A stretch of DNA of 32,547 bases from a virus (IMGVR_UViG_3300031578_000206:1-32547); one strand, 5' to 3'; shown: positions 1 to 22,475, counted from the stretch's first letter. Translations and numbers: made by a program. Notes: generated by a model from the sequence alone, not told the origin.

Positions 1-108
1 GAAGATTTTATAATGTTAAGAGATGGTGCTTGGGAACCTGATGAAAAATCATGTAATGCAAGTATAGACAATGTTCAAGATGTAATAAATATCATAGAAA
101 ATGAGTAA
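1..108 (+). CDS. C-terminal end of an upstream gene (partial)
   Basis: Frame 1 is open from the first base of the window and ends at TAA (106-108), giving the last 35 residues of a protein whose start lies outside the window. The tail is acidic and contains the sequence LRDGAWEPDEKS. I do not recognise the family. It overlaps the start of the helicase gene by 8 bases, so it probably belongs to the same replication operon and is translationally coupled to it. Confidence 0.6.
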   Translation, partial: EDFIMLRDGAWEPDEKSCNASIDNVQDVINIIENE

Positions 109-1057
109 ACCAACAGAATCATGGATAGGTCAATATGCTGCTTTTAATGATGCATTGAAGTATATGCATGCTAGATCAGTAGGTGAAGAAAAGTCTATTT
201 ATACACCATGGCCAAAATTTAATGATGCTACAACTGATGGTTTAGAATGGAATACATTAACTGTTGTTGGTGGAAGACCTGGTTCAGGTAAAACACTTAT
301 TAAAGATCAAATCATAAGAGAATCTTTTGCTTTAAATCCCAATGATGATTTTAGAGTATTAGAATTTCAATATGAGATGGTTGGTAGAACCTCAGCAATT
401 AGAGAATTTTCATCAGTCACTGGTAAAACTTATAAAGAGTTATGTAGTGCAGGAAGTTTAGTTACTGCTGATGTACTTAATACTTGTCATCAGTATGCTA
501 AACAAAGAGTTAAGCATCCTGTAGATATTGTTAGTACCCCAATGACTGTAAATCAAATGCGTGAGCAAATTGATATGTATATGCATCAACATAAAGGCAA
601 GAAGACTATTATTACTTTAGATCACACAATGTTAGTAAAAAGAGCACCTTATCAAAATAATTCATTAGATATGTTATTTGAATTAGGTGAGTTCTTTACA
701 CAATGTAAGCGTGATTATCCTTGTTTATTTATTGCATTATCACAACTCAATAGAAATATTGATAATCCTGAAAGAGCAATAGATGGTAAGTATGGTAATT
801 ATATTCTTGAATCAGATATATTTGGTTCAGATGCAATGCTACAACATGCTGATACCTTAATTGGTATTAACAGACCGGCAAAGCAAAAAATTAGATTTTA
901 TGGCCCAGATAGATATATCATTGAAGATGATAAAACTATAGTATTACATTTTCTTAAAGCAAGAAATGGTGACACTAGAATGAGTTTCTTTAAAGCTAAG
1001 TTTGAATCAATGCAGATTGAAGAAATGCCAACACCTGGAGTTCAAGAAAGAAGATAA
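101..1057 (+). CDS. DnaB-type replicative DNA helicase (RecA-fold domain only)
   Basis: This is probably the hexameric helicase that unwinds DNA at the phage fork. Motifs of the DnaB C-terminal ATPase are visible in order: Walker A GRPGSGKT (58-65), a conserved Glu in FQYEM (about 92), Walker B TIITLDH with Asp174, SQLNR (214-218), and the C-terminal HADTLIGINRP and KARNGDTR stretches that in DnaB hold the DNA-binding loop and arginine finger. At 318 residues it is far shorter than bacterial DnaB (about 450-470) and lacks the N-terminal primase-interaction domain. Its primase is encoded separately at 3068. It starts inside the previous gene and is followed by Sak4-like and SSB-like genes, which supports a replisome role. 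Confidence 0.9.
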   Translation: MSKPTESWIGQYAAFNDALKYMHARSVGEEKSIYTPWPKFNDATTDGLEWNTLTVVGGRPGSGKTLIKDQIIRESFALNPNDDFRVLEFQYEMVGRTSAIREFSSVTGKTYKELCSAGSLVTADVLNTCHQYAKQRVKHPVDIVSTPMTVNQMREQIDMYMHQHKGKKTIITLDHTMLVKRAPYQNNSLDMLFELGEFFTQCKRDYPCLFIALSQLNRNIDNPERAIDGKYGNYILESDIFGSDAMLQHADTLIGINRPAKQKIRFYGPDRYIIEDDKTIVLHFLKARNGDTRMSFFKAKFESMQIEEMPTPGVQERR

Positions 1058-1062
1058 ATAAT

Positions 1063-1605
1063 ATGATAAATACTAAAAATTTAAATAAAACAAAAAATAT
1101 GGCAATAACACCTGATGAACGTAAAACCAAGGTAAATGCATTAAGAGAAGAGCATGAAGATTACTTCCAAACCAATGGGATAATCAATGCATTATACATT
1201 CCTAAGATGGCTTACAGGCCAACTGGCAAAGATGAATTATATGTTAGTTTCTTCCCAAGTGAATTTGAGAAGAATGAAGACATCTATACTGAATTTGTAA
1301 GTATAAATTATGATACAGAGGATCCAAAAAGAACTCTATATCTTCATAAACACAATCCTCATTGGAAGGAAGAGTATGAATTAATTGAATCAAGTACTGG
1401 ATTTATTAGACACATAATCCCGGTTAATGAATTAAAGATCATAAATGATGTAACAAATAGAGGTAAACTTATCCATGACTTTGCTAATCCAGATCTACCA
1501 GATCCTGATAAGAAAGAAGTACCAGGTTTAGTTGAAGCTTTAGTTGAAATTAATAAGACACTTAAATCAATTCAATTAACATTAAATAGTATCCTTAATA
1601 AATAA
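1063..1605 (+). CDS. Conserved-looking hypothetical protein in replication operon
   Basis: The product is 180 residues and of unknown function. The internal ATG at 1099 (MAITPDERK) is preceded by an A-rich stretch like those before other starts here. The true product may therefore be 168 residues and the first 12 codons leader sequence. The body is mixed alpha/beta with many aromatic and charged residues. The last 30 residues (VEALVEINKTLKSIQLTLNS) look like an amphipathic helix that could oligomerise. It sits between the helicase and the Sak4-like ATPase with gaps of only a few bases, so a replication or recombination accessory role is plausible. No motif supports a specific function. Confidence 0.75.
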   Translation: MINTKNLNKTKNMAITPDERKTKVNALREEHEDYFQTNGIINALYIPKMAYRPTGKDELYVSFFPSEFEKNEDIYTEFVSINYDTEDPKRTLYLHKHNPHWKEEYELIESSTGFIRHIIPVNELKIINDVTNRGKLIHDFANPDLPDPDKKEVPGLVEALVEINKTLKSIQLTLNSILNK

Positions 1606-1611
1606 ATAAAT

Positions 1612-2295
1612 ATGGCACAAAGTGTATTAATCATTGCTGACTCAGGTACAGGCAAATCAACATCAATCAGACATCTAAATCCTGATGAAACTTTTGTAAT
1701 CAACATTGCAAATAAACCACTACCTTTTAAAGGTTGGAAAGGAATGTATACTGCAATTTCAAAAGACAATCCAAAAGGTAATTTAGCATCATCATCTTCT
1801 GCAGCAGGAGTTATTAAAGCTATTTTACATGTTAATGAAAAAATGCCGCACATCAAAACATTAGTTGTAGATGATTGGCAGTATATGAGTTCTTTTGAAT
1901 ATTTTGATAGAGCTAATGAAAAAGGTTATGAAAAATTTACACAAATTGCAGCAAACTTAGCTCAAGTAGCTAAACTACCTAAAGATTTGAGAGATGATCT
2001 AACTGTATTCTTTTTGACACACTCAGAAGATTCAACTGATATTAATGGGAATAGAAAAATTAAGGCAAAAACAATTGGTAAAATGATTGATAATGCATTA
2101 ACTTTGGAAGGTCTATTTTCCATTGTCTTATTTGGTAAAGTAAGTAAAAATGATGATGGTGAACTTATCTATGGTTTTGATACACAAAACAATGGAGAGA
2201 ACACATGTAAATCACCCCAAGGAATGTTTGAGGACATCTTTATCCCAAACAATTTGCAATTTGTAAAAGATTGCATCAAAAAATATGAAGAATAA
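1612..2295 (+). CDS. Sak4-like RecA-fold ATPase (single-strand annealing/recombination)
   Basis: This is a short RecA-core ATPase with Walker A ADSGTGKST (9-17) starting almost at the N-terminus and Walker B TLVVDDWQY (Asp87, Asp88). A sensor-like FFLTHSE stretch follows (about 133-139), then a C-terminal GFDTQNNGENTCKSPQGMF segment typical of phage Sak4/AAA_24 proteins. Sak4 proteins act with an SSB in single-strand annealing and homologous recombination of phage DNA. The SSB-like gene directly downstream fits that pairing, as does the PD-(D/E)XK nuclease at 9737. No DNA-binding L1/L2 loops of full RecA can be assigned. The alternative is a generic phage P-loop ATPase. Confidence 0.8.
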   Translation: MAQSVLIIADSGTGKSTSIRHLNPDETFVINIANKPLPFKGWKGMYTAISKDNPKGNLASSSSAAGVIKAILHVNEKMPHIKTLVVDDWQYMSSFEYFDRANEKGYEKFTQIAANLAQVAKLPKDLRDDLTVFFLTHSEDSTDINGNRKIKAKTIGKMIDNALTLEGLFSIVLFGKVSKNDDGELIYGFDTQNNGENTCKSPQGMFEDIFIPNNLQFVKDCIKKYEE

Positions 2296-2326
2296 TAAAT
2301 AAAAATCAATTAATTAAAAAAAAACT

Positions 2327-3004
2327 ATGTTAAGTACTAAAGGAATGTCAGCCGCTTCAGGCAAAGAAAAACCAGTAATTGGGACGGGAAACCACAAAGT
2401 AAAAATCAATTCAATTAGTTTTGATAAAACCCCTTATGATGAAAATTCATACAACATTATGTTGCATGTAGAATCAGAGCCAGTAACGGGAGATTTTCAA
2501 GGATTTTTGAAAGATATGAATAATCCTAATGGACCGCGTTATAAAGGTCAAGTGGGTAGAGTAAGATATTCACCATATCCATATAAAGACACTGTATTAC
2601 CCAACGGTAAAGAAATCAGCAGAGATACAGAAGTACAAAGAGCAATGATATTTTTAGCTGAAGCTTTAGATAAAAGAACAGAATTAGATAATATTGAAGC
2701 TAATACAATTGAAGATTTCATGGCAAAGTGTAATACATTACTATCTGGCCCTGAATATGTAAATGTTTGCCTTGGTGCCCGTGAATGGGAAAATGCTGAG
2801 GGATATGTGAATAATGATCTTTACTTACCTAAAATTAGTAAAGACGGTGTTTCTATAGAAGCATTGAATGTTGAAAATTCTAAGTTGTTAATTTTTGACA
2901 GCAATAATGTTAATCATTTGAGAAAAGTAGAGAAAAAAAATTCACCTACAACAGATAAATTTGAACCTAGTTCAGCTGCTTCTGGTGATGATTTTGATTT
3001 ATAA
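2327..3004 (+). CDS. Single-stranded DNA-binding protein-like (acidic C-terminal tail)
   Basis: The product has 225 residues. The N-terminal half starts GTGNHKVKINSISFDK and alternates short beta strands, as in phage OB-fold SSBs. The C-terminus is a low-complexity linker ending SGDDFDL, the acidic, hydrophobic-tipped tail by which SSBs recruit partner proteins. Position after a Sak4-like ATPase and before the primase supports the call. The leader before the ATG is a run of A residues. Family membership is inferred from architecture and context, because no catalytic motif exists for SSBs. A hairpin terminator follows directly. Confidence 0.7.
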   Translation: MLSTKGMSAASGKEKPVIGTGNHKVKINSISFDKTPYDENSYNIMLHVESEPVTGDFQGFLKDMNNPNGPRYKGQVGRVRYSPYPYKDTVLPNGKEISRDTEVQRAMIFLAEALDKRTELDNIEANTIEDFMAKCNTLLSGPEYVNVCLGAREWENAEGYVNNDLYLPKISKDGVSIEALNVENSKLLIFDSNNVNHLRKVEKKNSPTTDKFEPSSAASGDDFDL

Positions 3005-3020
3005 TAACTAACATAACTGT

Positions 3021-3052
3021 GGGGCTGGCTGTAATATGCCAGTCCCATTTTT
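3021..3052 (+). terminator. Intrinsic terminator after SSB-like gene
   Basis: A 9-bp stem (3021-3029 with 3038-3046, one G-U pair) closes an 8-base loop and is followed by ATTTTTATTT. It lies 17 bases after the SSB-like stop, so it would end or attenuate the first operon segment. Confidence 0.75.
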
Positions 3053-3067
3053 ATTTATATTCTCAAT

Positions 3068-4042
3068 ATGTTTAACACAAAAAATTTAGTATTAGAAGAA
3101 ACAGATGTTCCAAGCTATTGGGTGTTTCAATATTATTTAAACTTATCAAAACCCCTAACGGGTCAGGATGTGAAGATTAAATCAATCTTTAACCCTAATG
3201 ACAAAACTCCTAGCTTTTGTGTATACGTAGATAAATCTATAGGTATGTATAAGTTTAAGGATTTTTCAACTGGTAAAAACGGTAACAAAATAGACTTAGT
3301 TAAACTTATGTTTGATTTGGAATATAGAGATGCCGTTAGAAAAATAGTAGAAGATTACAACTCTTATGTTAAAACAACTGATTTTGAACAAGTATCTTTT
3401 AAAGTTCAGGCAAAATGGGAAATTGATTTTGTCAATACAAGACAATGGACTGAAAATGATGGTAGATATTGGTTAAATTTTAGAATAGGGTCTAACCTAT
3501 TAAAAGAATATAATGTAAAACCTATTGAGTATTACAATTTAATTAAACAAGAAGAAGGTGAAGTTAGAAAATTAAAAATTGAAGGACATTCTATTTATGG
3601 ATATTTTGATAAAAATGATGAGTTGTATAAAATATATCAACCATTAAGTAAACACAAATTCCACAAAGTAAAATCATACCTTCAAGGATTTGATCAATTA
3701 ACTTACACTCAACCTTATTTAGTAATTTGTTCATCATTGAAAGATGTCTTATGTCTTAAAAGTATTGGTTATAACATTGAAGTATTAGCACCAGACAGTG
3801 AAAATACAATAATTAAGCCCCATGTTATTGAGCACTTAAAAAAGAAGTATAAAAAAATAATCACATTCTTTGACAATGATACTGCAGGTAGTTTAGCAAT
3901 TGATAAGTATAAGACCTTATATAATCTAGATGGCTTTGCATTACCTTTGTCTAAAGATATTAGTGATTCTATGCGTGAACATGGTTTTGATATTGTACAT
4001 CAAACATTAAAGCCTTTACTTAAAGAAATTTTAAACAGATAA
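3068..4042 (+). CDS. DnaG-type DNA primase with TOPRIM domain
   Basis: This protein probably synthesises RNA primers at the phage fork. The N-terminal part FNPNDKTPSF (41-50) followed by KDFSTGKNGNKIDLVKLMF matches the CHC2 zinc-ribbon region of DnaG (SPFHxEKTPSF, GxxGNxIxFLM). The zinc-binding cysteines are missing. A TOPRIM-like segment follows: YLVICSSLKDVLCL (217-230), where the usual catalytic Glu region is replaced by SSLKD, then ITFFDNDTAG (265-274) with the DxD pair Asp269 and Asp271, and a KDISD segment at 296-300. Length (324) is short for DnaG because there is no helicase-binding domain. The gene starts just after a terminator and is 4 bases from the resolvase gene. Confidence 0.8.
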   Translation: MFNTKNLVLEETDVPSYWVFQYYLNLSKPLTGQDVKIKSIFNPNDKTPSFCVYVDKSIGMYKFKDFSTGKNGNKIDLVKLMFDLEYRDAVRKIVEDYNSYVKTTDFEQVSFKVQAKWEIDFVNTRQWTENDGRYWLNFRIGSNLLKEYNVKPIEYYNLIKQEEGEVRKLKIEGHSIYGYFDKNDELYKIYQPLSKHKFHKVKSYLQGFDQLTYTQPYLVICSSLKDVLCLKSIGYNIEVLAPDSENTIIKPHVIEHLKKKYKKIITFFDNDTAGSLAIDKYKTLYNLDGFALPLSKDISDSMREHGFDIVHQTLKPLLKEILNR

Positions 4043-4046
4043 AAAA

Positions 4047-4430
4047 ATGAAATGGTTCATACCGGGCTCAGTCCCAAGTAGTAAAAATGGTAGAAGATGG
4101 ACCGGCAAGTATTTTATAGCAAGTAAAACTGTTGTAAATTATAGAAAAATAGCTAAAGATTATTATGCGCAGTATGCAGAAGAGTTTAAAGCTGAGTTGG
4201 CCAAACATCAACAACCCGTAAGTATTCAATTTACATTTATCAGAGGCAGTAAACACAAGTTTGATTATATTAATCCCGCGCAGACAGTGCAAGATGATAT
4301 GGTTACATTTGGTTGGATTGAAGATGATAATGCTGATTGTATATTACCTGTATTTGTAGAATACAAATATGATAAACTTAACCCTGGAGTAATTATAGAA
4401 ATTTTACCAGATGGCAAGAATAACAGCTAA
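4047..4430 (+). CDS. RusA-like Holliday junction resolvase
   Basis: At 127 residues it matches the usual RusA size (about 120). The N-terminus IPGSVPSSKNGRRW is the typical RusA opening. Acidic positions appear in the expected places: Asp73 in FDYINPAQ, Asp83-Asp84 in VQDD, and Asp93-Asp94 in IEDDNAD, matching the RusA pattern of aspartates that bind magnesium. The DxDN motif reads DYIN here, so one acidic ligand is changed. RusA enzymes resolve four-way junctions formed during recombination-dependent phage replication or packaging. The gene overlaps the next one by 20 bases. Confidence 0.8.
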   Translation: MKWFIPGSVPSSKNGRRWTGKYFIASKTVVNYRKIAKDYYAQYAEEFKAELAKHQQPVSIQFTFIRGSKHKFDYINPAQTVQDDMVTFGWIEDDNADCILPVFVEYKYDKLNPGVIIEILPDGKNNS

Positions 4431-4713
4431 AGAGTTTTTCTCATTACGTGAGATGTTTATGGGTCTAGATGAAGACTTTGAATTAGCTTTAGAAAACTAC
4501 AAAAATTTAAATTTTAATGACAAACCTGTTTTAGACTTATTATTTACTAAATCAATGTTGTTTGATAAAAGAAAACGTTTTGTAAAAGCTATTGATAAAA
4601 GTTATACATCTGAAGAATTGATTGGTAAAAACATTAACTCTGTAGTAAAACAGTTTGGAGACTATGTTATTTACAAAAAAATATTATTAAAAATATTAGT
4701 TCCAGAAAAATGA
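4411..4713 (+). CDS. Small hypothetical protein upstream of VWA gene
   Basis: This is a 100-residue, mainly helical, Lys-rich protein with no recognised motif. It overlaps the resolvase gene by 20 bases and shares ATGA with the VWA/metallopeptidase gene downstream, so it is probably translationally coupled to that gene. It may be a partner of the VWA-MoxR module, but nothing in the sequence proves this. Confidence 0.7.
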   Translation: MARITAKEFFSLREMFMGLDEDFELALENYKNLNFNDKPVLDLLFTKSMLFDKRKRFVKAIDKSYTSEELIGKNINSVVKQFGDYVIYKKILLKILVPEK

Positions 4714-5870
4714 TAAATATACAAGATGGTGTTGCAAGAACCACCAAAACTTTAATTTTAGATGAGCCCTTTTATGGGCTTTTTTTAATTGGTATAAATA
4801 AACAATTCAGTGACCGTATACCTACAGCAGGTGTAAGTAAACATGGAATTGGAATGCAGTTAACAATTAACCCTAATTTCTTCACTGAGCTAAGTGAATT
4901 ACATAGAGTTGGATTGATTAAGCATGAATTATTACACATAGCATTTGGACATTTATTAATGAGAGATCTTTATCCTGATCACAAGTTATTTAACATAGCT
5001 GCAGATCTAGAGATTAATCAATATATTAGTTCAAACATGTTACCAGACGGTGGATTATTACTAAGTAGTTTTCCTGAATTAAATCTTCCTATAAAAGCAG
5101 GAACAAAAGTCTATTACAATTTATTAGAACAAGCCAAAGAAGATGGAACATCTCCTTCATTAGATTCATTAATGGATCAAATGGATGGTGAATCAGAGTA
5201 TTGCCATTCTACATGGGAGGAGTTTGATGATTTATCTGAAGCTGATAAAAAACTTGTTCAAAAACAAATAGACCATCAGTTAAAAGAAGCTGCTGAACAA
5301 ACTCAAAAAAAACAAGGAAATGTTCCCGGTGAGTTAAGTGAATTGATTGCAAAGTTATTTCACATTGAGCCAGCTAAATTTGATTGGAAAGCTTACTTGA
5401 GAAGATTTGTTGGAAACTCATCTGTAGTATACACTAAAAAGCTGAGACGTAAATACAATAAAAGATATGCTGAAAACCCAGGATTGAAGATTAAATTTAA
5501 AAATCACATCCTTGTTGGTATTGATACATCTGGATCTGTAAATACTAAAGAGCTTAAAGAGTTTTATAATGAGTTATGTCACATGAGTAAAACAGGACAC
5601 AAAATTACTGTTGCGCAGTGTGATACATCACTTAGAACTGTAGAAGAGTTTAATCCAAAAAAAGATTGGGCCATACACGGTAGAGGTGGAACAAGTTTCC
5701 AACCTGTAATTGACCACTATAATGAAAAAAAGTGTTATACAGCACTTATATACTTGACAGATGGTGAGGCTTATACTCCATCAGGTTGTCCAAACAATGC
5801 CTTATGGGTATTGAGTAGTATATCCACTATGAATGATGAACTTCCTGGTAAGGTTATTAAACTAAACTAA
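4710..5870 (+). CDS. VWA-domain protein with N-terminal zinc-metallopeptidase-like domain (DUF2201-like)
   Basis: The N-terminal half contains KHELLHIAFGH: a zincin HExxH (His72, Glu73, His76) with a further His81, followed by NIAADLEINQYI, which could supply a third ligand. The C-terminal half is a von Willebrand factor A-like domain with a complete MIDAS metal site: Asp272, Ser274, Ser276 in DTSGS, Thr328 in GGTSF and Asp351 in TDGEA. This order is that of DUF2201 proteins, which in bacteria are encoded beside MoxR-type AAA+ ATPases. Such an ATPase lies at 6301, one gene downstream. MoxR-VWA pairs usually remodel protein complexes or insert metal cofactors. Its target in a phage is unknown. 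The start overlaps the previous stop by ATGA. Confidence 0.85.
   Translation: MINIQDGVARTTKTLILDEPFYGLFLIGINKQFSDRIPTAGVSKHGIGMQLTINPNFFTELSELHRVGLIKHELLHIAFGHLLMRDLYPDHKLFNIAADLEINQYISSNMLPDGGLLLSSFPELNLPIKAGTKVYYNLLEQAKEDGTSPSLDSLMDQMDGESEYCHSTWEEFDDLSEADKKLVQKQIDHQLKEAAEQTQKKQGNVPGELSELIAKLFHIEPAKFDWKAYLRRFVGNSSVVYTKKLRRKYNKRYAENPGLKIKFKNHILVGIDTSGSVNTKELKEFYNELCHMSKTGHKITVAQCDTSLRTVEEFNPKKDWAIHGRGGTSFQPVIDHYNEKKCYTALIYLTDGEAYTPSGCPNNALWVLSSISTMNDELPGKVIKLN
4764..4786 (+). terminator. Terminator-like hairpin inside the start of the VWA gene
   Basis: AGCCC (4765-4769) pairs with GGGCT (4776-4780) across a 6-base loop and is followed by a run of seven T. By shape it is an intrinsic terminator, but it lies at about codons 19-26 of an intact gene. 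It may attenuate transcription into the VWA-MoxR module, or be a by-product of coding the residues DEPFYGLFL. Confidence 0.4.
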
Positions 5871-5872
5871 TT

Positions 5873-6283
5873 ATGGGAAGATATTATAATGGAGATATTG
5901 AAGGCAAGTTTGTCTTTGGTTCTCAAAGTAGTGCTGCTGCAGATAGATTTGGTGTAACAGGACAAACACCAGGTTACTTAGAGTATTATTATGATGAAAC
6001 TAATTTGGATGACCTGGAAACAGAACTTAAGGAAATAGAAAATTCATTTAAAGAATATAAAATTCCTTTATTAGCTTATTATGATTTATTTGGTGTAAAT
6101 GATGATGTTGAAATAACATTTGAAGAATATATCAAAAAAGGTAATCTTAAAGCTATGGATAATAAAAAACAAAGTGATTTTAATGACTATAGAATAGGTA
6201 GAAAAATTCTTGATTGTATCAAGGAATATGGAGAATGTAGTTTTACCGCTGAATGTTGTCCAGATCCTAAGAATTATAAATAA
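5873..6283 (+). CDS. Hypothetical protein between VWA and MoxR genes
   Basis: The product is 136 residues and acidic, opening GRYYNGDIEGKFVFGSQSSAAADRFGV and continuing with a helical, Glu/Lys-rich centre (DLETELKEIENSFKEY) that may form a coiled coil. I know of no assigned function. The start is 3 bases after the VWA stop and an A-rich leader precedes the next gene, so it is co-expressed with the VWA and AAA+ genes. Four Cys residues occur, three of them in the C-terminal ECSFTAECCPDP. Confidence 0.75.
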   Translation: MGRYYNGDIEGKFVFGSQSSAAADRFGVTGQTPGYLEYYYDETNLDDLETELKEIENSFKEYKIPLLAYYDLFGVNDDVEITFEEYIKKGNLKAMDNKKQSDFNDYRIGRKILDCIKEYGECSFTAECCPDPKNYK

Positions 6284-6300
6284 AAAAACAATTAAAAAAA

Positions 6301-7572
6301 ATGGCACAAGTAAATTTAAATGTAACTGAGTTAAAAGGATTTGTAAATCACATAATTACAAACAACAGATTTTTGCAAGAACAAGGTAAGAATTCTGTAT
6401 CAGTAGAGGTAGTTGGTGAGTCAGGTATTGGTAAAACATCTACCATTGTTGAACTGGCAAAGGAAAATGATTTAAACTTTGTAAAGTTAAACCTAGCACA
6501 GATAGAAGAGTTGGGTGATCTAGTGGGTTTTCCTGTTAGACAATTCCAAATGTATAAAGAGACAAGAGTTTCAGAACCAAAAATAGATGATTTATCCTAT
6601 ACTGCAGCACAAAGAACAGCTGCATCATCAGACATTGCTAAAATACAAGCACCAGTGACTAAAAAAGTTGGTTTATGGGTTGATGAACTTGCTGTACAAG
6701 AGTATCTAAAAAATGGATACAAAATGACAGGTAAGAACAGGATGTCTTATTGTCCACCGGAGTGGATTGCTGATAAAAAAGAAGGTGGTATACTTCTTTT
6801 AGACGATTGGAACCGCGCAGATACCCGCTTCATCCAGGCAGTAATGGAGTTAATAGATAGACAAACCTATATCTCTTGGACTTTACCAAAAGATTGGCAT
6901 ATTATATTAACAGCAAACCCAGATAATGGTGAGTATATGGTAAATTCAGTAGATGCTGCACAAAAGACCAGATATGTTACAGCAAACCTTAAGTTTGATG
7001 TTAATGTATGGGCGCAATGGGCAGAAGAAGCAGGTATTGACTCAAGATGTATCAACTTCTTGTTGTTACACCCGGAGTTAGTTACACTAGAAACAAATGC
7101 AAGATCTATCACAACATTTTTCAATGCTATATCTAGTTTTGATAATTTTGAAGATAACTTATCATTAATCCAAATGATTGGTGAAGGTTCTGTAGGAGAT
7201 GCTTTTGCTTCTATGTTTACTACATTTATTAATAATAAACTGGACAAACTGGTAACACCTAAAGATTTGTTAACTCATGATAATGAATCATATATCTTAG
7301 GTGAGCTAAGAGGTTGTATTGGTAAAGATGATACATACCGCGCAGACATTGCTGCTACATTAGCAACAAGGTTAGCTAACTACTCAGTTGTTTACAGTAA
7401 AGAAAACACTGTAAACCAAAAACTTACTGATAGATTAATTGCACTTTGTACTAAAGACTATTTTACTAGTGATCTTAAGTATTTAATTGTACGTACAATC
7501 TTTAGTGGTAACAAACAGAAGTTTAACAAAATGATGATGAATCCTGATATCATCAAAATGACAATGAAATAA
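6301..7572 (+). CDS. MoxR-type AAA+ ATPase
   Basis: AAA+ features are visible: Walker A GESGIGKT (39-46), Walker B ILLLDDWNRA (164-173, Asp168-Asp169), sensor 1 ILTANPD with Asn206, and QKTRY around Arg224, a candidate arginine finger. The Walker B and sensor sequences are those of the MoxR/AAA_5 group, and length (423) fits. MoxR ATPases act with VWA-domain partners; the DUF2201-like VWA protein is one gene upstream. The two probably form an ATP-driven remodelling machine. The leader before the ATG is an A-rich stretch, and the next gene starts 1 base after its stop. This could instead be a dynein-like AAA_5 ATPase of other use, but the pairing argues for MoxR-VWA. Confidence 0.85.
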   Translation: MAQVNLNVTELKGFVNHIITNNRFLQEQGKNSVSVEVVGESGIGKTSTIVELAKENDLNFVKLNLAQIEELGDLVGFPVRQFQMYKETRVSEPKIDDLSYTAAQRTAASSDIAKIQAPVTKKVGLWVDELAVQEYLKNGYKMTGKNRMSYCPPEWIADKKEGGILLLDDWNRADTRFIQAVMELIDRQTYISWTLPKDWHIILTANPDNGEYMVNSVDAAQKTRYVTANLKFDVNVWAQWAEEAGIDSRCINFLLLHPELVTLETNARSITTFFNAISSFDNFEDNLSLIQMIGEGSVGDAFASMFTTFINNKLDKLVTPKDLLTHDNESYILGELRGCIGKDDTYRADIAATLATRLANYSVVYSKENTVNQKLTDRLIALCTKDYFTSDLKYLIVRTIFSGNKQKFNKMMMNPDIIKMTMK

Positions 7573-7573
7573 A

Positions 7574-8596
7574 ATGGCAAGTAAATCAGTTTATCAATCA
7601 TATGATACTGGTGCTTTGAATCATTTTGGATTAGATAGTGCCCCATATTATGGGGTGCTGTCATCCAATCTGGTAGAAGAAGTATTAGTCACTCAAGATG
7701 AAACAACATTTGAACAAATAAAAAATATATTAACGGACAGTACTGAAGATAGTACAACTTTTAAAACTAAAAAGAAAGCTTTTGTTTTGCCCAAGTGTAG
7801 TATTTCATTAGACAGAATTAAATATGCTTTAAAAGAACACGGTATAACTGTAACCAATGATTATAAGTTAGCTGATTTAATTATTACCCATGATGATATC
7901 TATGAAAGATTTGAAAGTGGAGAAAATATTAAGTCAACTATATTAATGTCTAAGTTATGGAACTATCAAACTCTTGAAGAAACAAATGGTGAAGTCTTAG
8001 CTGTAGATGCTTATGCGGGAGATGTAATTTATGATGGTAATTTAGCTAGCAAAGTAAGATATTATAATTGTACTACAGGTGACTCATTATATGATGAATG
8101 GATGATTACTGGTATGGCTGTTAATCTTGCTCATAAAATTGATGCAGGATTAGTTGGAACAATTGATGCAGATACAGTAATTTATGAATCAGCTAATAAA
8201 CAAATTTTAGATGAAACATTATTAGAAGATCTGCAAAAGTATTTAAGATCTCCTAATGATGAAGATAGGGCCATAGCCGCAAAAGTTATTCCTACAATTA
8301 ATTACTTACAAAATTATCATTTATTATGGCAGTTTGCTCAAAATGCAGAACATTATATGTATCACTTTAATAGAGACAAAGATGTACAGTATTGGTTAAA
8401 ACAATCTAACTTCATTAGATTCTCTAGAAAGAGTGCGCATGATATGATTCTTTGGTTAGAAAAAAATGAAAAGCTTGATTCAGTTAGTTTTAAGTATTTA
8501 GAACCAACTGTAAGAAAAGAAATCTATATTACCAACAGAGACTTGTATGTATTTAAAGTGCAAGTAAAACCAGAATATTTAAAATATTTAAAATAA
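7574..8596 (+). CDS. Hypothetical protein, first of two tandem paralogues
   Basis: The product is 340 residues with no recognised family. Residues 69-107 (SLDRIKYALKEHGITVTNDY, then KLADLIITHD) form an alternating beta/alpha segment. The C-terminal part is helical with SPNDEDRAIAAKVIPTINYL (about 228-247), resembling a HEAT-like helical pair. The downstream gene at 8598 has matching segments in the same order (ELADIHIVSD and SEDKDNRTLAVEMLANCNVE), so the two are diverged duplicates. It starts 1 base after the MoxR-type ATPase stop, hence is probably part of that module. The 39-residue segment has a faint BRCT-like look, which I do not consider established. Confidence 0.8.
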   Translation: MASKSVYQSYDTGALNHFGLDSAPYYGVLSSNLVEEVLVTQDETTFEQIKNILTDSTEDSTTFKTKKKAFVLPKCSISLDRIKYALKEHGITVTNDYKLADLIITHDDIYERFESGENIKSTILMSKLWNYQTLEETNGEVLAVDAYAGDVIYDGNLASKVRYYNCTTGDSLYDEWMITGMAVNLAHKIDAGLVGTIDADTVIYESANKQILDETLLEDLQKYLRSPNDEDRAIAAKVIPTINYLQNYHLLWQFAQNAEHYMYHFNRDKDVQYWLKQSNFIRFSRKSAHDMILWLEKNEKLDSVSFKYLEPTVRKEIYITNRDLYVFKVQVKPEYLKYLK

Positions 8597-8597
8597 A

Positions 8598-9752
8598 ATG
8601 AAAAAAAAACATTATATATTAGACATAACCGTTTCAGCTGAAAATTCAATCTGGTCAAACGGAAAGCAAAGATTGGGTATTGGATCTTTTACTTTAAAAG
8701 AAAATGGTTATTACTTTGGTAGATCTAAAAACTGGTATCCTGATGAAGATGAGCTTGATTTATTAGGTATAATTACTTCAGATAAAGCAATTGATTTGCA
8801 AGATAAAAAAATATACAGATATCCAAATTTAGAATTACCCAGACAAAAAGTAGATTTGCTTAAAACAAAATTTAATGTGAAAATCATTAGAGATGCTGAA
8901 TTAGCAGATATCCACATTGTGTCAGATAAATTAATTACAAATTTGCTAACACTTGATTGGGGTAAATCATTGAAGTATGTTCAAATGTTTGAAATATTTA
9001 AAACTTTGAAAGAAAATGATGATTTAACTGAGACTGGTTTAGATAAATGCAGAGAAATTCTATCTACAGTAGAAGAAGATGCATATGTACGCATTCAAGT
9101 TGCTACAGATTTCAGGTCTACATCATCTATAGCAGATGATATTAATAATAAAATCTCAGATTTTGATCATGATGGTTCTAGAGATATGGTTGTCAGACAT
9201 GATAATGTAGCTTTATATGATTACTTGTGTAATACAACAGCATTGATTGTAAAGGATGTTGAAATCAATAAGATTATATCAGAAGATTTAGCTGTAATAA
9301 GTGAAGATCAATTTGATCAGGTATCTAAAATGATTCAAAGTGAAGACAAAGACAATAGAACTTTAGCTGTAGAAATGTTGGCTAATTGTAATGTTGAAGA
9401 ATCTTTTGACATAGTTAGTTATTTATTCTTTTGGTATTATGATTGGTTCAAAGACACCAGCAACTGGAATAGCATCAATCTAAAAACACTACGTAAAAGA
9501 CTTGATAAGTTTTCTGGTAGTAAAGACAACAACCGTCAGTGGGCTTATGATAAGTATGTACAGTTATTAGAAGAAGAAAATAAATTAACAGATTTTATTG
9601 TTAAAAAAACAATTCAAAAGATGTATGATTCTGTAATTAAAAACACATTTGGTTGTAAAAACAATGTATTTTCAATAGACATTGATTCCATATACTTAGT
9701 AGACAAATATAAAAACTCAATAATAGAAAAAAAAGAATGTATAGAGATTTAA
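8598..9752 (+). CDS. Hypothetical protein, second of two tandem paralogues
   Basis: The product is 384 residues of unknown function. It shares with its upstream neighbour a strand-helix-strand segment (residues about 71-110, ending AELADIHIVSD) and a helical segment with SEDKDNRTLAVEMLANCN. The N-terminal 70 residues and the C-terminal end differ. It begins 1 base after the neighbour's stop. It overlaps the start of the nuclease gene by 16 bases, linking the VWA-MoxR module with the recombination genes. No catalytic motif is apparent. A scaffold or substrate-adaptor role for the AAA+ machine would be a guess. Confidence 0.8.
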   Translation: MKKKHYILDITVSAENSIWSNGKQRLGIGSFTLKENGYYFGRSKNWYPDEDELDLLGIITSDKAIDLQDKKIYRYPNLELPRQKVDLLKTKFNVKIIRDAELADIHIVSDKLITNLLTLDWGKSLKYVQMFEIFKTLKENDDLTETGLDKCREILSTVEEDAYVRIQVATDFRSTSSIADDINNKISDFDHDGSRDMVVRHDNVALYDYLCNTTALIVKDVEINKIISEDLAVISEDQFDQVSKMIQSEDKDNRTLAVEMLANCNVEESFDIVSYLFFWYYDWFKDTSNWNSINLKTLRKRLDKFSGSKDNNRQWAYDKYVQLLEEENKLTDFIVKKTIQKMYDSVIKNTFGCKNNVFSIDIDSIYLVDKYKNSIIEKKECIEI

Positions 9753-10741
9753 TAAAAGAAGAAAAGTTTTATGTAAATAAAAACTTCAAGTTTAGTTATT
9801 CCTCATTGAATAAACTATTGTTTTCACCATCCTTGTTTTACAAGGATTATATTTTAGAAGACCGTGAGATTAAAACTGATAAGCATTTAGTTGAAGGTAA
9901 ATTGATTCACTGCCTTTTATTTGAGGAAAATAAGCTTAATGATAAGTTTAACATTTTACCCGGTAAGCTTCCGGCAGATAGTAATATCAAAGTATTGAAT
10001 GCATTGTATAACATCACAAGTAACCGTGAGTCAACTTTATTAAGTCAAGAACCTACATTTCAACAAGAAATATTACAGGTATTGATTGATCAAAACTTAT
10101 ACCAGTCACTTAAGTTAGATGACGCTAGGTTAGAGAAGATTCAAAATGCAGACAATGAGTCTTATTGGGATTATTTAAAAAATAGTAGCAAAGATGCTGT
10201 TGATGGAGATACTCTAGCAAAATGCAGAGATCAAGCTGAGAACATTAAAAGCAATAAAGATGTAATGTCTTTGTTTGAAGATGTTCAAACTGATTTTGAG
10301 TTAGATCCCGTTGAAACACATACAGAGAAATACTTAACATCTGATTTATTAGACAAACCTTTTGGCCTTCATGGTTATTTGGATTACTACAAAATTAATC
10401 ACTCTACAAAAGAAGTAACAATTTGTGATCTCAAGACAACAGGTAAAACTATTTCAGACTTCAAAGAAACCATTGATTTTTATAATTATTGGTTACAAGC
10501 AGCTATATATTGCAAATTAGTTTTTGCAAATTTGTCTGAAAATGAACAAGAGTATAATATTTTGTTTAAATTTGTTGTAGTAGATAAGTACAAACAAGTA
10601 TATGTTTTTGATGTAACAGATGAAACATTGAACGGTTGGGCTAGTGCATTAGAAGATGTTATTGAAAGAGCTAGTTATCATTATACAAAAAAAAATTACT
10701 CATTACCTTATGATTTCCTTTTGGGAAATGTTAAATTATAA
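9737..10741 (+). CDS. PD-(D/E)XK exonuclease, Cas4/RecB-like
   Basis: This 334-residue protein has the RecB/Cas4-family signature in order: His58 in VEGKLIH, Asp216 in LHGYLDYY, the DxK pair Asp231-Lys233 in ICDLKTTG, and the QxxxY motif Gln254-Tyr258 in WLQAAIYCK. N-terminal FSYSSLNKLLFSPSLFYKDY is also typical of phage PD-(D/E)XK exonucleases (PDDEXK_1/YqaJ-like). No four-Cys iron-sulfur cluster pattern is visible, unlike canonical Cas4. It would resect DNA ends to make single strands for the Sak4-like annealing protein. The first ATG overlaps the previous gene by 16 bases. Confidence 0.85.
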   Translation: MYRDLIKEEKFYVNKNFKFSYSSLNKLLFSPSLFYKDYILEDREIKTDKHLVEGKLIHCLLFEENKLNDKFNILPGKLPADSNIKVLNALYNITSNRESTLLSQEPTFQQEILQVLIDQNLYQSLKLDDARLEKIQNADNESYWDYLKNSSKDAVDGDTLAKCRDQAENIKSNKDVMSLFEDVQTDFELDPVETHTEKYLTSDLLDKPFGLHGYLDYYKINHSTKEVTICDLKTTGKTISDFKETIDFYNYWLQAAIYCKLVFANLSENEQEYNILFKFVVVDKYKQVYVFDVTDETLNGWASALEDVIERASYHYTKKNYSLPYDFLLGNVKL

Positions 10742-10743
10742 GT

Positions 10744-11325
10744 ATGAAGGGTGTATACACTGATTATTTTCAAAAAAGTAAAGTATTTCTTTATCCTTTG
10801 CTGAGGTTTAAATCCGGTTTATTATTTGTTCCCACGCAGACTTATGTCTGCTGGGAGCATTTAATTACAAAAGATGAAAATAAGTTTTTGTGTGAGTACA
10901 ATGTAGGTATAAACGAAAAGTTTGAATTGTTTTGCAATTCATATCTTAAAAAGCACCCGTTGTTTTATGAATATGTACAGCTTGATGAAAATAAACATTT
11001 ATTTATTTTTGACTTTAACCAATACAAATCAGATTTTAAAAGATTTCTTGATGGTAAGTATTCTAAGTTTAGTTTAGATACAAAAATCACAATTTTAGAC
11101 TTTTTTGGAAATAAAGGTAACATTTCAGAATACATAAGTTTGTTTTTATCTCCTGATTCAGCACATGAACTTTATGCAAAGGCCCTAAATGTTTCATTAG
11201 AACAAATTGAAGATGTTTTTGAAGTTTGTAGTATCCCAGATTTAAAGAAAGAAACTCTTTACTTTAAAAAAAATGAACTATTTTGTAAAAAAATTAAAAA
11301 TAGTTCTGTATCTTTGAAAAATTAA
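10744..11325 (+). CDS. Hypothetical protein
   Basis: The product is 193 residues and unusually rich in Phe, Tyr and Lys, beginning MKGVYTDYFQKSKVFLYPLL. It has no signal peptide or membrane segment that I can support. It may be conserved among Bacteroidota phages, but I cannot name a family. It starts 2 bases after the nuclease stop. A strong 11-bp hairpin with one bulge (10830-10856) lies within its early codons (PTQTYVCWE). The C-terminus is very Lys-rich. Confidence 0.75.
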   Translation: MKGVYTDYFQKSKVFLYPLLRFKSGLLFVPTQTYVCWEHLITKDENKFLCEYNVGINEKFELFCNSYLKKHPLFYEYVQLDENKHLFIFDFNQYKSDFKRFLDGKYSKFSLDTKITILDFFGNKGNISEYISLFLSPDSAHELYAKALNVSLEQIEDVFEVCSIPDLKKETLYFKKNELFCKKIKNSSVSLKN

Positions 11326-11335
11326 AATTAACAAT

Positions 11336-11752
11336 ATGTCACAAACAATTGGGCAAAACATGATGTTGGTAACATCTAGTTTTAGAAATGCCAAATCTTT
11401 TACCTTGATTCCAGTGAGCAATGACTCACCATATGTTGAAGCTATGTATGACCCAGCGTCAGGCATTTTAGCTGTTATTAGTAAAGTGATGAAACAATCT
11501 TATCACATGGTTGCAAAACTAGATGAAGATGGTCAACCAATGAGATTAAAGAATCCTAATCCTCAAACTGGTAAAACAGTTAAAGAAGAAAGAAGATTAG
11601 TTGATACCTTTTCTGAGTTCTATTTATCTGATGCTTTGGATATTGAACAATTCATTCATTTGTTTGCTATTAATGCTGCAACTTTTGATTATAAAGCATT
11701 TTTTGTTGAATTGAAAGAAACAAAAAAATCCAATATCATATTGCAAGCATAA
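11336..11752 (+). CDS. Hypothetical protein
   Basis: The product is 138 residues. The N-terminal half looks beta-rich (MMLVTSSFRNAKSFTLIPVS, then SPYVEAMYDPASGILAVISK), followed by a charged loop with NPNPQTGKTVKEERR and a helical end. There is no known family. It lies upstream of an A/T hairpin with a long T run and of the polymerase gene, so it is probably the last gene of this operon segment. Confidence 0.75.
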   Translation: MSQTIGQNMMLVTSSFRNAKSFTLIPVSNDSPYVEAMYDPASGILAVISKVMKQSYHMVAKLDEDGQPMRLKNPNPQTGKTVKEERRLVDTFSEFYLSDALDIEQFIHLFAINAATFDYKAFFVELKETKKSNIILQA

Positions 11753-11774
11753 TTTAATAAGTCATTAATTTAAG

Positions 11775-11807
11775 AAAAAAGATGTATTAACTTATGTCTT
11801 TTTTTTT
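11775..11807 (+). terminator. Possible terminator before polymerase gene
   Basis: AAAAAAGA (11775-11782) can pair with TCTTTTTT (11797-11804) around a 14-base loop, followed by more T. The stem is almost entirely A-T, so strength is doubtful. It occupies part of the 105-base gap between two genes. Confidence 0.4.
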
Positions 11808-11857
11808 GCTTAAAAAATAAAACATGCTAGAAAAAGCAATAAATTATTTAAAAATGT

Positions 11858-13855
11858 ATGAGTAAAAAACACTGGGTCCACGACTATGAAACCCTTCAAA
11901 ATTGTTTTACAGGTGTATTTGAAGATTATAAGACCATGGAAACAAAAGTCTTTGTTATTCATGACCTGCAAAATGATTTAGATAAGTTTGTAAGTTTTTT
12001 AAATACAAATATAGCCAATAAAGAATGGCATATATCTTATAATGGTTTAGCTTTTGATGCTCAAATAACACATTTTATATTAGATAATCATAATGATTGG
12101 TTAGATTTTACGGGTTGTGAAATTGCAAGTATTATTTATAAATGTGCACAAAAAGCTATACAAAAAAGCAATAAAAAAGAATTTGCTGATTATCCTCAAT
12201 GGAAAATGTCAATTGGTCAAATAGATATCTTTAAAATGCATCACTGGGATAACCCGGCCAAGCGTTCTAGTTTAAAATGGATCCAATATAGCATGGATTG
12301 GGATAACATTCTTGAAATGCCTATTCACCATGAATCAGCAATAACTACAAGAGAGGAAATTGATACAATATTAGAATACTGTATTAATGATGTAAGGTCA
12401 ACTAAGGAAATATATAACAGATCAAAATCACAGATAGGATTAAGAAAAGAATTGACTAAAAGATATGGTATTAATTTATTTAGTGCATCTGAACCAAGAA
12501 TCAGCAAAGAGCTGTTTGGATATTATTTATCTGAAAAACTAAATATTCCTAAAAAAGAATTAAAGAATATGAGGACCCATAGAGATATCATAAAAATCAA
12601 AGATATCATTCTACCTTATATCAACTTTAGTTCTGTTGAGTTTAGTACTTTACTACAAAGATTTAAGGCATTAGAAATAAATGGAAAGAATCTTAAAGGT
12701 AGTTTTAAGTACAGTTTGAACTATAAAGATGTTAAAACTGACTTTGGTTTAGGTGGTGTGCATGGTGCAAGAAAAAAAGGTGTTTATGAAAGCACTGAAG
12801 ATATGATTATAATGTCTTCAGATGTTACCAGTTTTTATCCTAATCTTGCAATCAGAAATAAATGGTCTCCGGGACACTTTCCTGTTGATGCATTTTGTGA
12901 TCAATATGAATGGTTCTTTGAAGAGCGTAAGAAGATCCCTAAGAGCAATCCAATGAACTATGTATACAAGATTATACTTAACTCTACTTTTGGTCTTAGC
13001 AATGATGAAAACAGCTTTTTTTATGATCCTGAGTTGTGTATGAAGATTACAATTAATGGCCAGTTAACTTTAATGATGCTTTATGAGCAAATCATGGAAA
13101 GAATTCCCGGTGCAGTAGCATTATTACATAATACAGATGGTGTTGAGACATTAATACCCAGAAAGTACTATGATGAGTATATGCTTATTTGTAAAGAATG
13201 GGAAGAAACTACCAATTTGTCTTTAGAACATGATCAATACCAAAAATTGGTACTTGGAGATGTAAACAATTACATTGGTATCAATGACTACAAAGAAGTT
13301 GACATTACTAAATGGAGAGCAATTAAACAATCTGATCCACATTATTTATTTAAAGTAGAAAATGATAAGTTTAGTTATGCTGCTGTAAAATTAAAAGGTA
13401 GATTTGATTTTCATAATCTGCAGTTGCATAAAAACAAATCAAAGTTGGTTATACCAAAAGCAATTTATCAGTATTTTGTACACAATGTTCTTCCTGAAGA
13501 ATACTTGGAACAAAACAAAAATATACTTGATTATTGTATTGGTAGTAAGTCAAATGGAGATTGGAAATGTGTGGCCAGATCAATCAAGCAAGGTGCCTTT
13601 GTAGAAGATGAGCTTCAAAAAATTAATAGATATTATATATCTAAGACTGGAGTTAAGATTATAAAGGTAAACAGAGTTGATAAAAGAGAAATACAACTGG
13701 AGGCTGGTAAATGGATACAAGCAATCTTTAACAAAATGAAGATGGAACCCAAATGGGAAACATACAATATTGATAAAGGTTATTATATCCAGGCCATTGA
13801 GAATGAAATAAATAACATTCTAACTGTATCATCAAATCAATTGAGATTATTTTAA
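11858..13855 (+). CDS. Family B DNA polymerase with 3'-5' exonuclease
   Basis: This is the phage replicative polymerase. Exonuclease motifs: Exo I DYET (Asp9, Glu11) very near the N-terminus, Exo II YNGLAFD (Asn62-Asp67), Exo III YCIND (Tyr174-Asp178). Polymerase motifs: a GLGGVHG stretch (297-303) in the place of the YxGG element, motif A DVTSFYP (Asp322-Pro328), motif B KIILNSTFG (371-379), motif C HNTDG (424-428). Motif C has Asn in place of the first Asp and Gly for Ser; the second, metal-binding Asp427 is kept. Only about 43 residues separate motifs A and B, which is short. Length 665 is small for cellular PolB and similar to compact phage enzymes. No TPR insertions of protein-primed polymerases could be assigned. 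Confidence 0.92.
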   Translation: MSKKHWVHDYETLQNCFTGVFEDYKTMETKVFVIHDLQNDLDKFVSFLNTNIANKEWHISYNGLAFDAQITHFILDNHNDWLDFTGCEIASIIYKCAQKAIQKSNKKEFADYPQWKMSIGQIDIFKMHHWDNPAKRSSLKWIQYSMDWDNILEMPIHHESAITTREEIDTILEYCINDVRSTKEIYNRSKSQIGLRKELTKRYGINLFSASEPRISKELFGYYLSEKLNIPKKELKNMRTHRDIIKIKDIILPYINFSSVEFSTLLQRFKALEINGKNLKGSFKYSLNYKDVKTDFGLGGVHGARKKGVYESTEDMIIMSSDVTSFYPNLAIRNKWSPGHFPVDAFCDQYEWFFEERKKIPKSNPMNYVYKIILNSTFGLSNDENSFFYDPELCMKITINGQLTLMMLYEQIMERIPGAVALLHNTDGVETLIPRKYYDEYMLICKEWEETTNLSLEHDQYQKLVLGDVNNYIGINDYKEVDITKWRAIKQSDPHYLFKVENDKFSYAAVKLKGRFDFHNLQLHKNKSKLVIPKAIYQYFVHNVLPEEYLEQNKNILDYCIGSKSNGDWKCVARSIKQGAFVEDELQKINRYYISKTGVKIIKVNRVDKREIQLEAGKWIQAIFNKMKMEPKWETYNIDKGYYIQAIENEINNILTVSSNQLRLF

Positions 13856-21763: not shown

Positions 21764-22136
21764 TGCTTCTTTTTTTTTGTTTTCTATAATATTTTGATGT
21801 CATTGATGTTAAGTTTAAAAAAGATATAATTAATGGTAAAAACCATAACCAATGAGAAGGATTGACCATTGTATCCCTAAATACAAACGCTAATAGTACA
21901 AAAATTGAAAATATAAATGAGGCGTAAGATAAAGTTTTTCTTACTTTAATTGGATGAGAGCAAGTTGCTTTGACCATAGCTAGACCCAATAAGATACTTG
22001 GGATTATGATAAATAAGTTACAAGAGAACTCAAAGCACCATATAACTGGTAGTATGATAAGCCAAATTATACCAATGAGAATTTCCATTGGTTCAGTATC
22101 ATAGTAACTGAAAATATTAACTAATCTCTTTTTCAT
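21750..22136 (-). CDS. Polytopic membrane protein (about four spans)
   Basis: I place the start at ATG 22136 (MKKRLVNIFSYYDTE, 128 residues). The open frame extends 20 codons further but into the divergent promoter region. Hydrophobic spans: ILIGIIWLIILPVIWCF, LFIIIPSILLGLAMV, YASFIFSIFVLLAFVF and WLWFLPLIISFLNL, with a basic end (KYYRKQKKRSND). It is the first gene of the leftward late block. A holin or antiholin role is possible, but family is unknown. Confidence 0.65.
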   Translation of the reverse strand: MKKRLVNIFSYYDTEPMEILIGIIWLIILPVIWCFEFSCNLFIIIPSILLGLAMVKATCSHPIKVRKTLSYASFIFSIFVLLAFVFRDTMVNPSHWLWFLPLIISFLNLTSMTSKYYRKQKKRSNDII

Positions 22137-22153
22137 TATACATATATATATCT

Positions 22154-22161
22154 TATATTTG
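22154..22161 (+). promoter_or_regulatory. Possible rightward -7 box for the RNR cassette
   Basis: TATATTTG on the plus strand fits the Bacteroidota -7 consensus and lies 77 bases before the first rightward ATG (22239). No TTG is found 17-23 bases upstream. It sits immediately beside the leftward box at 22163-22170, so the two promoters would overlap. Confidence 0.35.
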
Positions 22162-22162
22162 C

Positions 22163-22196
22163 CAAAGGTATTTTCCTGACTATATATAATATACAA
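22163..22196 (-). promoter_or_regulatory. Leftward promoter for the late small-gene block
   Basis: Reading on the minus strand: TTG (22194-22196), a 23-base spacer, TACCTTTG (22163-22170), matching the Bacteroidota pattern TTG-N17-23-TAnnTTTG. It lies 26 bases before the chosen ATG at 22136, which supports that shorter start. Confidence 0.5.
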
Positions 22197-22238
22197 AAAT
22201 AATTTTACAAATTAACTTTTTAAACCAAAAAATTCATT

Positions 22239-22433
22239 ATGAATAAAATTAACCCTTTAATCTTTAGAAACAGATTTAATATAGAGTTTCTACCAACAGA
22301 ACCAATACTTGGTCTTAAACTTATTAATTGCCGAGTATTATGTGAAGATGATATTTACCGTCTTGTTTCAGGTATAGAAATAGGCTTTATTTTCTTTACA
22401 TTTAGTTATGCAAATATGCATAATAATAGCTAA
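22239..22433 (+). CDS. Small hypothetical protein at head of RNR cassette
   Basis: The product is 64 residues. The N-terminal half is polar (MNKINPLIFRNRFNIEFLPT) and the rest hydrophobic (LVSGIEIGFIFFTFSYANMH), possibly a membrane-associated segment. It is the first rightward gene of the divergent region, and nrdB follows after 61 bases. Function unknown. Confidence 0.6.
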   Translation: MNKINPLIFRNRFNIEFLPTEPILGLKLINCRVLCEDDIYRLVSGIEIGFIFFTFSYANMHNNS

Positions 22434-22457
22434 AAATTTAGTAAATTATATATACTC

Positions 22458-22475
22458 AAGTTCACTTAAGAACTT
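22458..22475. promoter_or_regulatory. Inverted repeat upstream of RNR small subunit
   Basis: AAGTTC (22458-22463) and GAACTT (22470-22475) form a 6-bp inverted repeat with a 6-base spacer, 20 bases before the nrdB-like ATG. It could be an operator or leader hairpin. A repeat this short may be chance. Confidence 0.25.

What the first reader, a model, noticed from the sequence alone, without database searches (positions are those of the whole stretch)
4411..9752. Phage-encoded VWA-metallopeptidase and MoxR AAA+ module with two paralogous partners
Six coupled genes with 1-20 base overlaps or gaps bring together a DUF2201-like protein (HExxH plus intact MIDAS), a MoxR-type AAA+ ATPase, two small unknowns and two duplicated proteins. 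MoxR-VWA pairs are known bacterial remodelling or cofactor-insertion machines. Finding one embedded between replication and recombination genes of a phage suggests an undescribed machine acting on the phage replisome or on a host complex. The zincin motif in the VWA protein adds possible proteolysis.
Basis: partly seen in the sequence, partly recalled or inferred. Interest (0 to 1): 0.72.

Follow-up and report, generated by a model that had tools for sequence, protein, structure and literature searches.

The report
CrAss-like phage MoxR–VWA peptidase machine
A distant relative of marine crAss-like phages carries, inside its DNA-replication genes, a known type of ATP-driven protein-remodelling pair (a MoxR motor and a peptidase-like partner), here joined to two fast-evolving duplicated proteins that look like DNA-repair-style adaptors and may steer the machine to its unknown target.

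Summary
At 4411-9752 six tightly packed + strand genes include a DUF2201 protein (HExxH zincin plus intact MIDAS) and a MoxR-type AAA+ ATPase. The pair itself is not new: it is N4 gp24/gp25, core in Schitoviridae, and was described in jumbo phages by Iyer et al. 2021. New here are the setting and the partners. The window is a fragment of a marine phage distantly related to Crassvirales. In 72 of 72 loci fetched with the phage's DNA polymerase, the VWA, AAA and both partner genes are present. The 136-aa gene is optional (10/72). The two partners are paralogues: a more distant clade has one copy in the same place, matching both. Both are predicted to be a BRCT-like domain plus HEAT/ARM-like helices; the 100-aa first gene may be a stand-alone copy of that helical part. 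One relative fuses VWA and AAA. Catalytic motifs are nearly invariant (HExxH 147/147, Walker A 121/121), and homing elements sit in the HExxH codons and next to Walker B. Best reading: a MoxR-VWA remodelling or proteolysis machine acting during DNA replication/recombination, with the duplicated proteins as adaptors. The target is unknown. New variant of a known kind.

The parts
4411..4713 (+). Gene A, 100 aa: small fast-evolving protein; possible stand-alone copy of the helical domain of E/F
   Evidence: No family match above cut-off. Profile comparison A-F, A-EF and A-E ranks 4th, 5th and 9th of 136 family pairs, weak in absolute terms (P 0.004-0.013). Present in 69/72 polymerase-bait loci.
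4710..5870 (+). Gene B, 386 aa: DUF2201_N metallopeptidase domain + DUF2201 VWA domain
   Evidence: Pfam PF13203 3.3e-18, PF09967 9.5e-15; phrog_1314 5.7e-62
4923..4952 (+). HELLHIAFGH zincin motif of gene B
   Evidence: HExxH in 147/147 distinct full-length relatives
5523..5537 (+). MIDAS DxSxS (DTSGS) of gene B; T motif at 5679-5693, D motif at 5757-5768
   Evidence: 142/147, 142/147 and 139/147 in relatives
5873..6283 (+). Gene C, 136 aa: optional accessory insert between VWA and AAA
   Evidence: phrog_33624 3e-11, unknown function. Present in about 17/80 and 10/72 relatives; in most of the others VWA and AAA are 4-16 bases apart.
6301..7572 (+). Gene D, 423 aa: MoxR-type AAA+ ATPase (Walker A 6415-6438, Walker B 6793-6819, sensor 1 6910-6927, putative arginine-finger region 6958-6972)
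   Evidence: phrog_1297 8.6e-35; motifs
7574..8596 (+). Gene E, 340 aa: partner 1; BRCT-like domain (about 7754-8194) then HEAT/ARM-like helices (from 8195)
   Evidence: AlphaFold2 pLDDT 86; Foldseek/VIA BRCT hits, Z up to 6.3; Pfam BRCT sub-threshold in 13/36 orthologues
8598..9752 (+). Gene F, 384 aa: partner 2, paralogue of E; BRCT-like domain (about 8793-9290) then HEAT/ARM-like helices (from 9291)
   Evidence: AlphaFold2 pLDDT 86; BRCT top VIA hit Z 7.5; bridged to E by single-copy homologues
101..4430 (+). Upstream replication/recombination block: DnaB-like helicase, unknown, Sak4, unknown, primase, RusA
9737..13855 (+). Downstream block: PDDEXK exonuclease VIII-like nuclease, two unknowns, DNA polymerase

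Best explanation
The module is a MoxR AAA+/VWA remodelling machine with a peptidase head that works during the DNA replication/recombination phase of infection. Gene D would form the ATPase ring. Gene B would dock on it and use its MIDAS metal site to grip an acidic residue on a target protein, as shown for CbbO and proposed for other VWA partners. ATP hydrolysis would then remodel the target, and the HExxH domain would cut it or a partner of it. Genes E and F (and perhaps A), products of duplication of one ancestral BRCT-like + helical protein, would be adaptors that bring the machine to its targets, most plausibly at phage DNA or DNA-bound complexes. Shown by computation: the families, motifs, linkage, one fusion, the duplication. 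Inferred: ring assembly, adaptor role, DNA-linked target, proteolysis.
For: B and D families and intact motifs. Linkage: B, D, E and F all present in 72/72 polymerase-bait loci; the same order Sak4-primase-VWA-AAA-E/F protein-PDDEXK in a distant clade. VWA-AAA fusion of 786 aa in one contig, L405. AAA and VWA are about as conserved as the helicase and more so than the polymerase (87.5% and 80.8% vs 87.7% and 78.0%), while E, F and A are at 56%, 36% and 37%, the pattern of a fixed engine with changing adaptors. A LAGLIDADG-bearing insert splits the HEL|LH codons of the VWA gene and a group I intron sits right after Walker B of the AAA gene in distant relatives. Mechanistic precedent: CbbQO MIDAS mutants lose target sensing (PMC4660213); NorQD structure with VWA finger in the AAA pore (PMC13036017). 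BRCT-like fold of E and F.
Against: No target and no biochemical data. The cultured relative phi14:2 has the replication genes without the module. In some jumbo phages the pair lies beside virion genes (Kaldavass, Madawaska). The BRCT match is below Pfam's cut-off and structural Z values of 5-7.5 are in the range where chance matches occur (notes). No VWA-AAA complex prediction could be run.
Confidence: 0.5

Rival explanations
1. Virion assembly/maturation machine: the MoxR-VWA pair acts as chaperone and cochaperone for virion proteins and the peptidase processes them, as Iyer et al. proposed for group 2.2 jumbo phages.
For: Published proposal and the precedent of Acidianus two-tailed virus. 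In Erwinia phage Kaldavass the pair sits next to genes annotated as virion structural proteins; Madawaska has a baseplate gene nearby.
Against: Here and in all relatives examined the genes sit inside the replication block; the replication and virion-type genes lie on opposite strands in relative G001. In N4-like phages the neighbours are RNA polymerase and nucleotide-metabolism genes.
Confidence: 0.2
2. Host-takeover or counter-defence machine: the conserved engine removes, unfolds or cuts host complexes, and E/F/A vary because they track host targets.
For: E, F and A diverge far faster than B and D; C is an optional insert; module absent in phi14:2.
Against: Fixed position in the replication block and universal retention in the loci of two clades look more like a core function than a host-range accessory; no PADLOC match of note.
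Confidence: 0.2
3. Metal-cofactor insertion machine (as NorQD) for a phage enzyme such as its ribonucleotide reductase small subunit.
For: MoxR-VWA pairs insert metals; RNR genes are encoded in the window at 22408-25240.
Against: phi14:2 encodes RNR alpha and beta but lacks the module; a conserved peptidase motif is not explained.
Confidence: 0.05
4. The HExxH site binds zinc for structure only, and the machine is a pure remodeller without proteolysis (a sub-variant that can hold together with any of the target readings above).
For: Most characterised MoxR-VWA systems are not proteases (own knowledge).
Against: HExxH is invariant in 147/147 distinct relatives, with a homing element inserted in exactly those codons in one relative; neither proves catalysis.
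Confidence: 0.3

Closest known systems
MoxR AAA+ / metallopeptidase-vWA pair of group 2.2 jumbo phages (Iyer et al. 2021, PMC7824862)
   Same: Same two proteins: a MoxR ATPase and a vWA protein with N-terminal metallopeptidase domain
   Different: There proposed for virion assembly; no E/F/A partners reported in the passage read; the sampled jumbo-phage pairs have AAA before VWA, here VWA comes first
N4 gp24/gp25 of Schitoviridae
   Same: AAA+ ATPase plus vWFA/metallopeptidase protein, core genes; VWA hit by tblastn in phage Pollock
   Different: Order is AAA then VWA; Pollock carries no detectable E/F homologue near the pair
CbbQ-CbbO, NorQ-NorD, RavA-ViaA (bacterial MoxR-VWA pairs)
   Same: MoxR AAA+ with VWA partner; proposed mechanism borrowed from them
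   Different: None of these has the DUF2201 peptidase domain as far as I know (own knowledge); host metabolic targets
Alteromonas phage AD45-P2 COG3864/COG0714 pair
   Same: VWA-like gene directly followed by MoxR-like gene, the same order as here
   Different: No annotated E/F-like partners; E and F have no tblastn match in the phage collection
Crassvirales, Cellulophaga phage phi14:2
   Same: Distant protein matches in terminase-, portal- and capsid-position genes, large RNA-polymerase-position genes, PolA, Sak4, primase, RusA
   Different: phi14:2 lacks B, D, E and F

Membership tests
DUF2201 VWA metallopeptidase (gene B) | DUF2201_N and DUF2201 domains above Pfam cut-off | tested here: met
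   66.7 and 55.3 bits against cut-offs 23.2 and 26.4
DUF2201 VWA metallopeptidase (gene B) | HExxH and complete MIDAS | tested here: met
DUF2201 VWA metallopeptidase (gene B) | Proteolytic activity | not testable with these tools
   needs an assay
MoxR AAA+ ATPase (gene D) | Walker A, Walker B with DxxRA, sensor 1, arginine-finger region | tested here: met
   121/121, 120/121, 121/121, 121/121
MoxR AAA+ ATPase (gene D) | Score above curated cut-off of a Pfam AAA_3/AAA_5 model | tested here: not met
   AAA_5 20.3 of 22 bits, AAA_3 17 of 27; placed by phrog_1297, motifs and genetic partner instead, so called 'MoxR-type' only
MoxR-VWA two-component machine | AAA and VWA genes adjacent and co-inherited | tested here: met
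   72/72 loci; fusion in L405
MoxR-VWA two-component machine | Physical complex of hexameric AAA with VWA protein | not testable with these tools
   no complex prediction offered
BRCT domain (genes E and F) | Pfam BRCT above cut-off | tested here: not met
   best 16.8 bits (E 0.0083) of 21.3; in a six-frame scan of 11 phage records the only matches (3) fall inside gene E
BRCT domain (genes E and F) | BRCT fold | tested here: inconclusive
   BRCT chains dominate the alpha/beta hits of both models, Z about 4-7.5, rmsd about 3 A over 60-80 residues; Z below 8 is not decisive
E and F as paralogues | Significant similarity, direct or through intermediates | tested here: met
   Direct: no. Single-copy homologues match F at 1e-19 to 1e-30 and E at up to 1.4e-8 in per-locus searches; collinear alignment over both domains
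Crassvirales | Homologous terminase, portal, capsid and RNAP genes in the same genome architecture | tested here: inconclusive
   Complete-looking relative G001 has distant matches to phi14:2 (3e-16, 8e-26, 9e-8, 8e-12); no phylogeny was built

The most novel reading that the evidence does not exclude
A phage-specific DNA-directed AAA+ protease/remodelling machine in which duplicated BRCT-like adaptors, otherwise mainly known from eukaryotic DNA repair and bacterial ligase, bring a MoxR-VWA zincin engine to replication or recombination intermediates.
Probability: 0.2. Interest if true: 0.8.

Novelty: new variant of a known kind. Interest (0 to 1): 0.5.

Why it matters
The MoxR-VWA metallopeptidase pair is a core gene pair of N4-like phages and occurs in jumbo and, as shown here, crAss-related marine phages, yet I found no published experimental function for it. 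The crAss-related version gives handles the others lack: dedicated adaptors that duplicated and diverged, a fusion that supports direct contact, and a fixed place among replication genes. It points to cheap tests (N4 gp24/gp25 knockouts, pull-downs) of what this widespread phage machine does.

Tried and rejected
BLASTP of E against F: nothing. E and F against 50,697 phage records by tblastn: no match even at E 0.1; the single-copy homologue also none. Sequence search of E and F profiles against PDB: no credible hit. PADLOC: no meaningful match. NCBIfam: nothing useful for B and D. Rfam on the window: nothing. The annotation 'HNH endonuclease' for the VWA family (phrog_1314 and many records) looks like a propagated misannotation; no HNH domain is found in gene B. 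A bacterial genome scan with the AAA profile found only three phage-like contigs in MAGs of unrelated phyla, so it says nothing on host. Metal insertion into RNR rejected as main reading because phi14:2 has RNR without the module. Literature: two crAss papers read do not mention MoxR or vWA.

Full report
Observation. The six ORFs exist as described, on one strand, with gaps of -20 to 17 bases. Gene B (4710-5870) has the DUF2201_N metallopeptidase domain and the DUF2201 VWA-like domain, HELLHIAFGH and a complete MIDAS. Gene D (6301-7572) is a MoxR-type AAA+ ATPase by phrog_1297 and motifs; it stays just under the Pfam AAA_5 cut-off. The neighbours are replication and recombination genes.

What the window is. 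It is a 32.5-kb virus record. A relative of 118,325 bases with a 127-base terminal repeat aligns to almost all of it at 73-94% DNA identity. That relative carries distant matches to the Crassvirales phage phi14:2 in the terminase, portal and capsid positions and in the giant genes where crAss RNA polymerase lies (position names follow phi14:2's order and my knowledge of crAss-like genomes). So the window is best called a fragment of a phage distantly related to Crassvirales; its relatives include several contigs of 107-118 kb.

Is the module fixed? Loci fetched with the AAA gene all carry the block, but that set was chosen by one of its members. I therefore fetched loci with the DNA polymerase: in all 72 with at least 8 kb upstream, B, D, E and F are present; A is in 69 and C in 10. 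C is thus an optional insert; without it VWA and AAA lie 4-16 bases apart in most loci. A bait using Sak4 of phi14:2 led to a distant clade (L325, L326, L329, then L402-L416) with the order Sak4, primase, VWA, AAA, one E/F-type protein, a RusA-like protein, PDDEXK. phi14:2 itself has neither B, D, E nor F.

Paralogy of E and F. Direct comparison finds nothing and profile comparison only P 0.009. The single-copy proteins of the distant clade settle it better: they match F at up to 1e-30 and E at up to 1.4e-8 (per-locus databases, so E-values are optimistic), collinear over both domains. In an all-against-all profile comparison of 17 families (136 pairs), all six pairs among A, E, F and the single-copy family rank in the top nine; another top pair is Sak4-AAA, a true P-loop pair. 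The case for A rests on about 40 residues and is weaker. BFVD structural matches to E include two different proteins of one phage, Podoviridae sp. ctz6O13, and one of a crAss-like virus, which fits a two-copy family.

Fold of E and F. Both models are confident (pLDDT 86). For both, BRCT domains dominate the alpha/beta matches over the same region, followed by ARM/HEAT-like helices. Pfam BRCT is the family matched by most E orthologues, 13 of 36, best E 0.0083, always near residues 65-120 in those inspected. In a six-frame scan of eleven phage records the only BRCT matches are three, all inside gene E by coordinates. All of these are below curated cut-offs or Z 8, so BRCT-like is likely but not proven.

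Constraint. Mean identity to the window over the same 16 loci: helicase 87.7, AAA 87.5, Sak4 85.6, VWA 80.8, polymerase 78.0, E 56.3, A 37.1, F 36.2. HExxH is kept in 147/147 distinct proteins, MIDAS in 142/147, Walker A in 121/121. In distant relatives a LAGLIDADG-bearing insert interrupts the VWA gene between HEL and LH, and a group I intron with a GIY-YIG ORF interrupts the AAA gene directly after LILDDFTRAD. Homing elements tend to sit in highly constrained codons (general knowledge). One contig, L405, fuses VWA and AAA in one 786-aa frame; it is a single case, so an assembly error is not excluded.

Prior knowledge. Iyer et al. 2021 described the MoxR and metallopeptidase-vWA pair in group 2.2 jumbo phages and proposed virion assembly with proteolysis. 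N4 gp24/gp25 are the same kind of pair and count as core genes. tblastn finds the VWA family in 386 phage records. So the pair is known; I found no report of it in crAss-like phages in the papers searched and no record of the E/F partners in the phage collection.

Mechanism. From CbbQO (MIDAS mutants mostly keep ATPase but lose target sensing) and NorQD (VWA finger in the AAA pore) the most likely working is target gripping by the VWA MIDAS and ATP-driven remodelling by the ring, with cutting by the zincin as an open extra. The contrast of a rigid engine and fast-changing E/F/A suggests adaptors. Position argues for the replication phase; that is inference. Genome context in other phages is mixed, so the virion-assembly reading stays alive.

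Noticed in passing
L325:14384-15419, L329:14600-15541: Group I introns (Rfam RF00028, E about 5e-20) with GIY-YIG/NUMOD ORFs at the AAA gene of distant relatives; in L329 the gene is interrupted right after Walker B.
   Followed up: partly
L326:13907-16207: A LAGLIDADG-bearing insert splits the VWA gene exactly inside the HELLH motif; not recognised as a group I intron by Rfam.
   Followed up: partly
L405:2581-4950: VWA and AAA genes fused in one open frame of 790 codons; only one contig.
   Followed up: partly
window:25389-31202 and 31209-32471: Minus-strand 1937-aa and 420-aa genes; the 1937-aa one matches distantly, through its orthologue in G001, the giant phi14:2 gene at the crAss RNA-polymerase position.
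   Followed up: partly
window:5873-6283: Optional 128-136-aa gene starting MGRYYNGDIEGKF (phrog_33624) inserted between VWA and AAA in about a fifth of relatives.
   Followed up: partly
phrog_1314 and records such as OR602862.1:149175-150347: The VWA metallopeptidase family is widely annotated 'HNH endonuclease', which seems to be a propagated error.
   Followed up: no
window:4047-11858: No Shine-Dalgarno-like sequences before the eleven genes checked; A-rich leaders, as usual in Bacteroidota (own knowledge), which would fit a Bacteroidota host.
   Followed up: no
KC821624 (phi14:2) 22025-28931: Between primase and RusA, near where the window's relatives carry the module, phi14:2 has gamma-glutamyl cyclotransferase, ATP-grasp and glutamine amidotransferase-type genes.
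   Followed up: no
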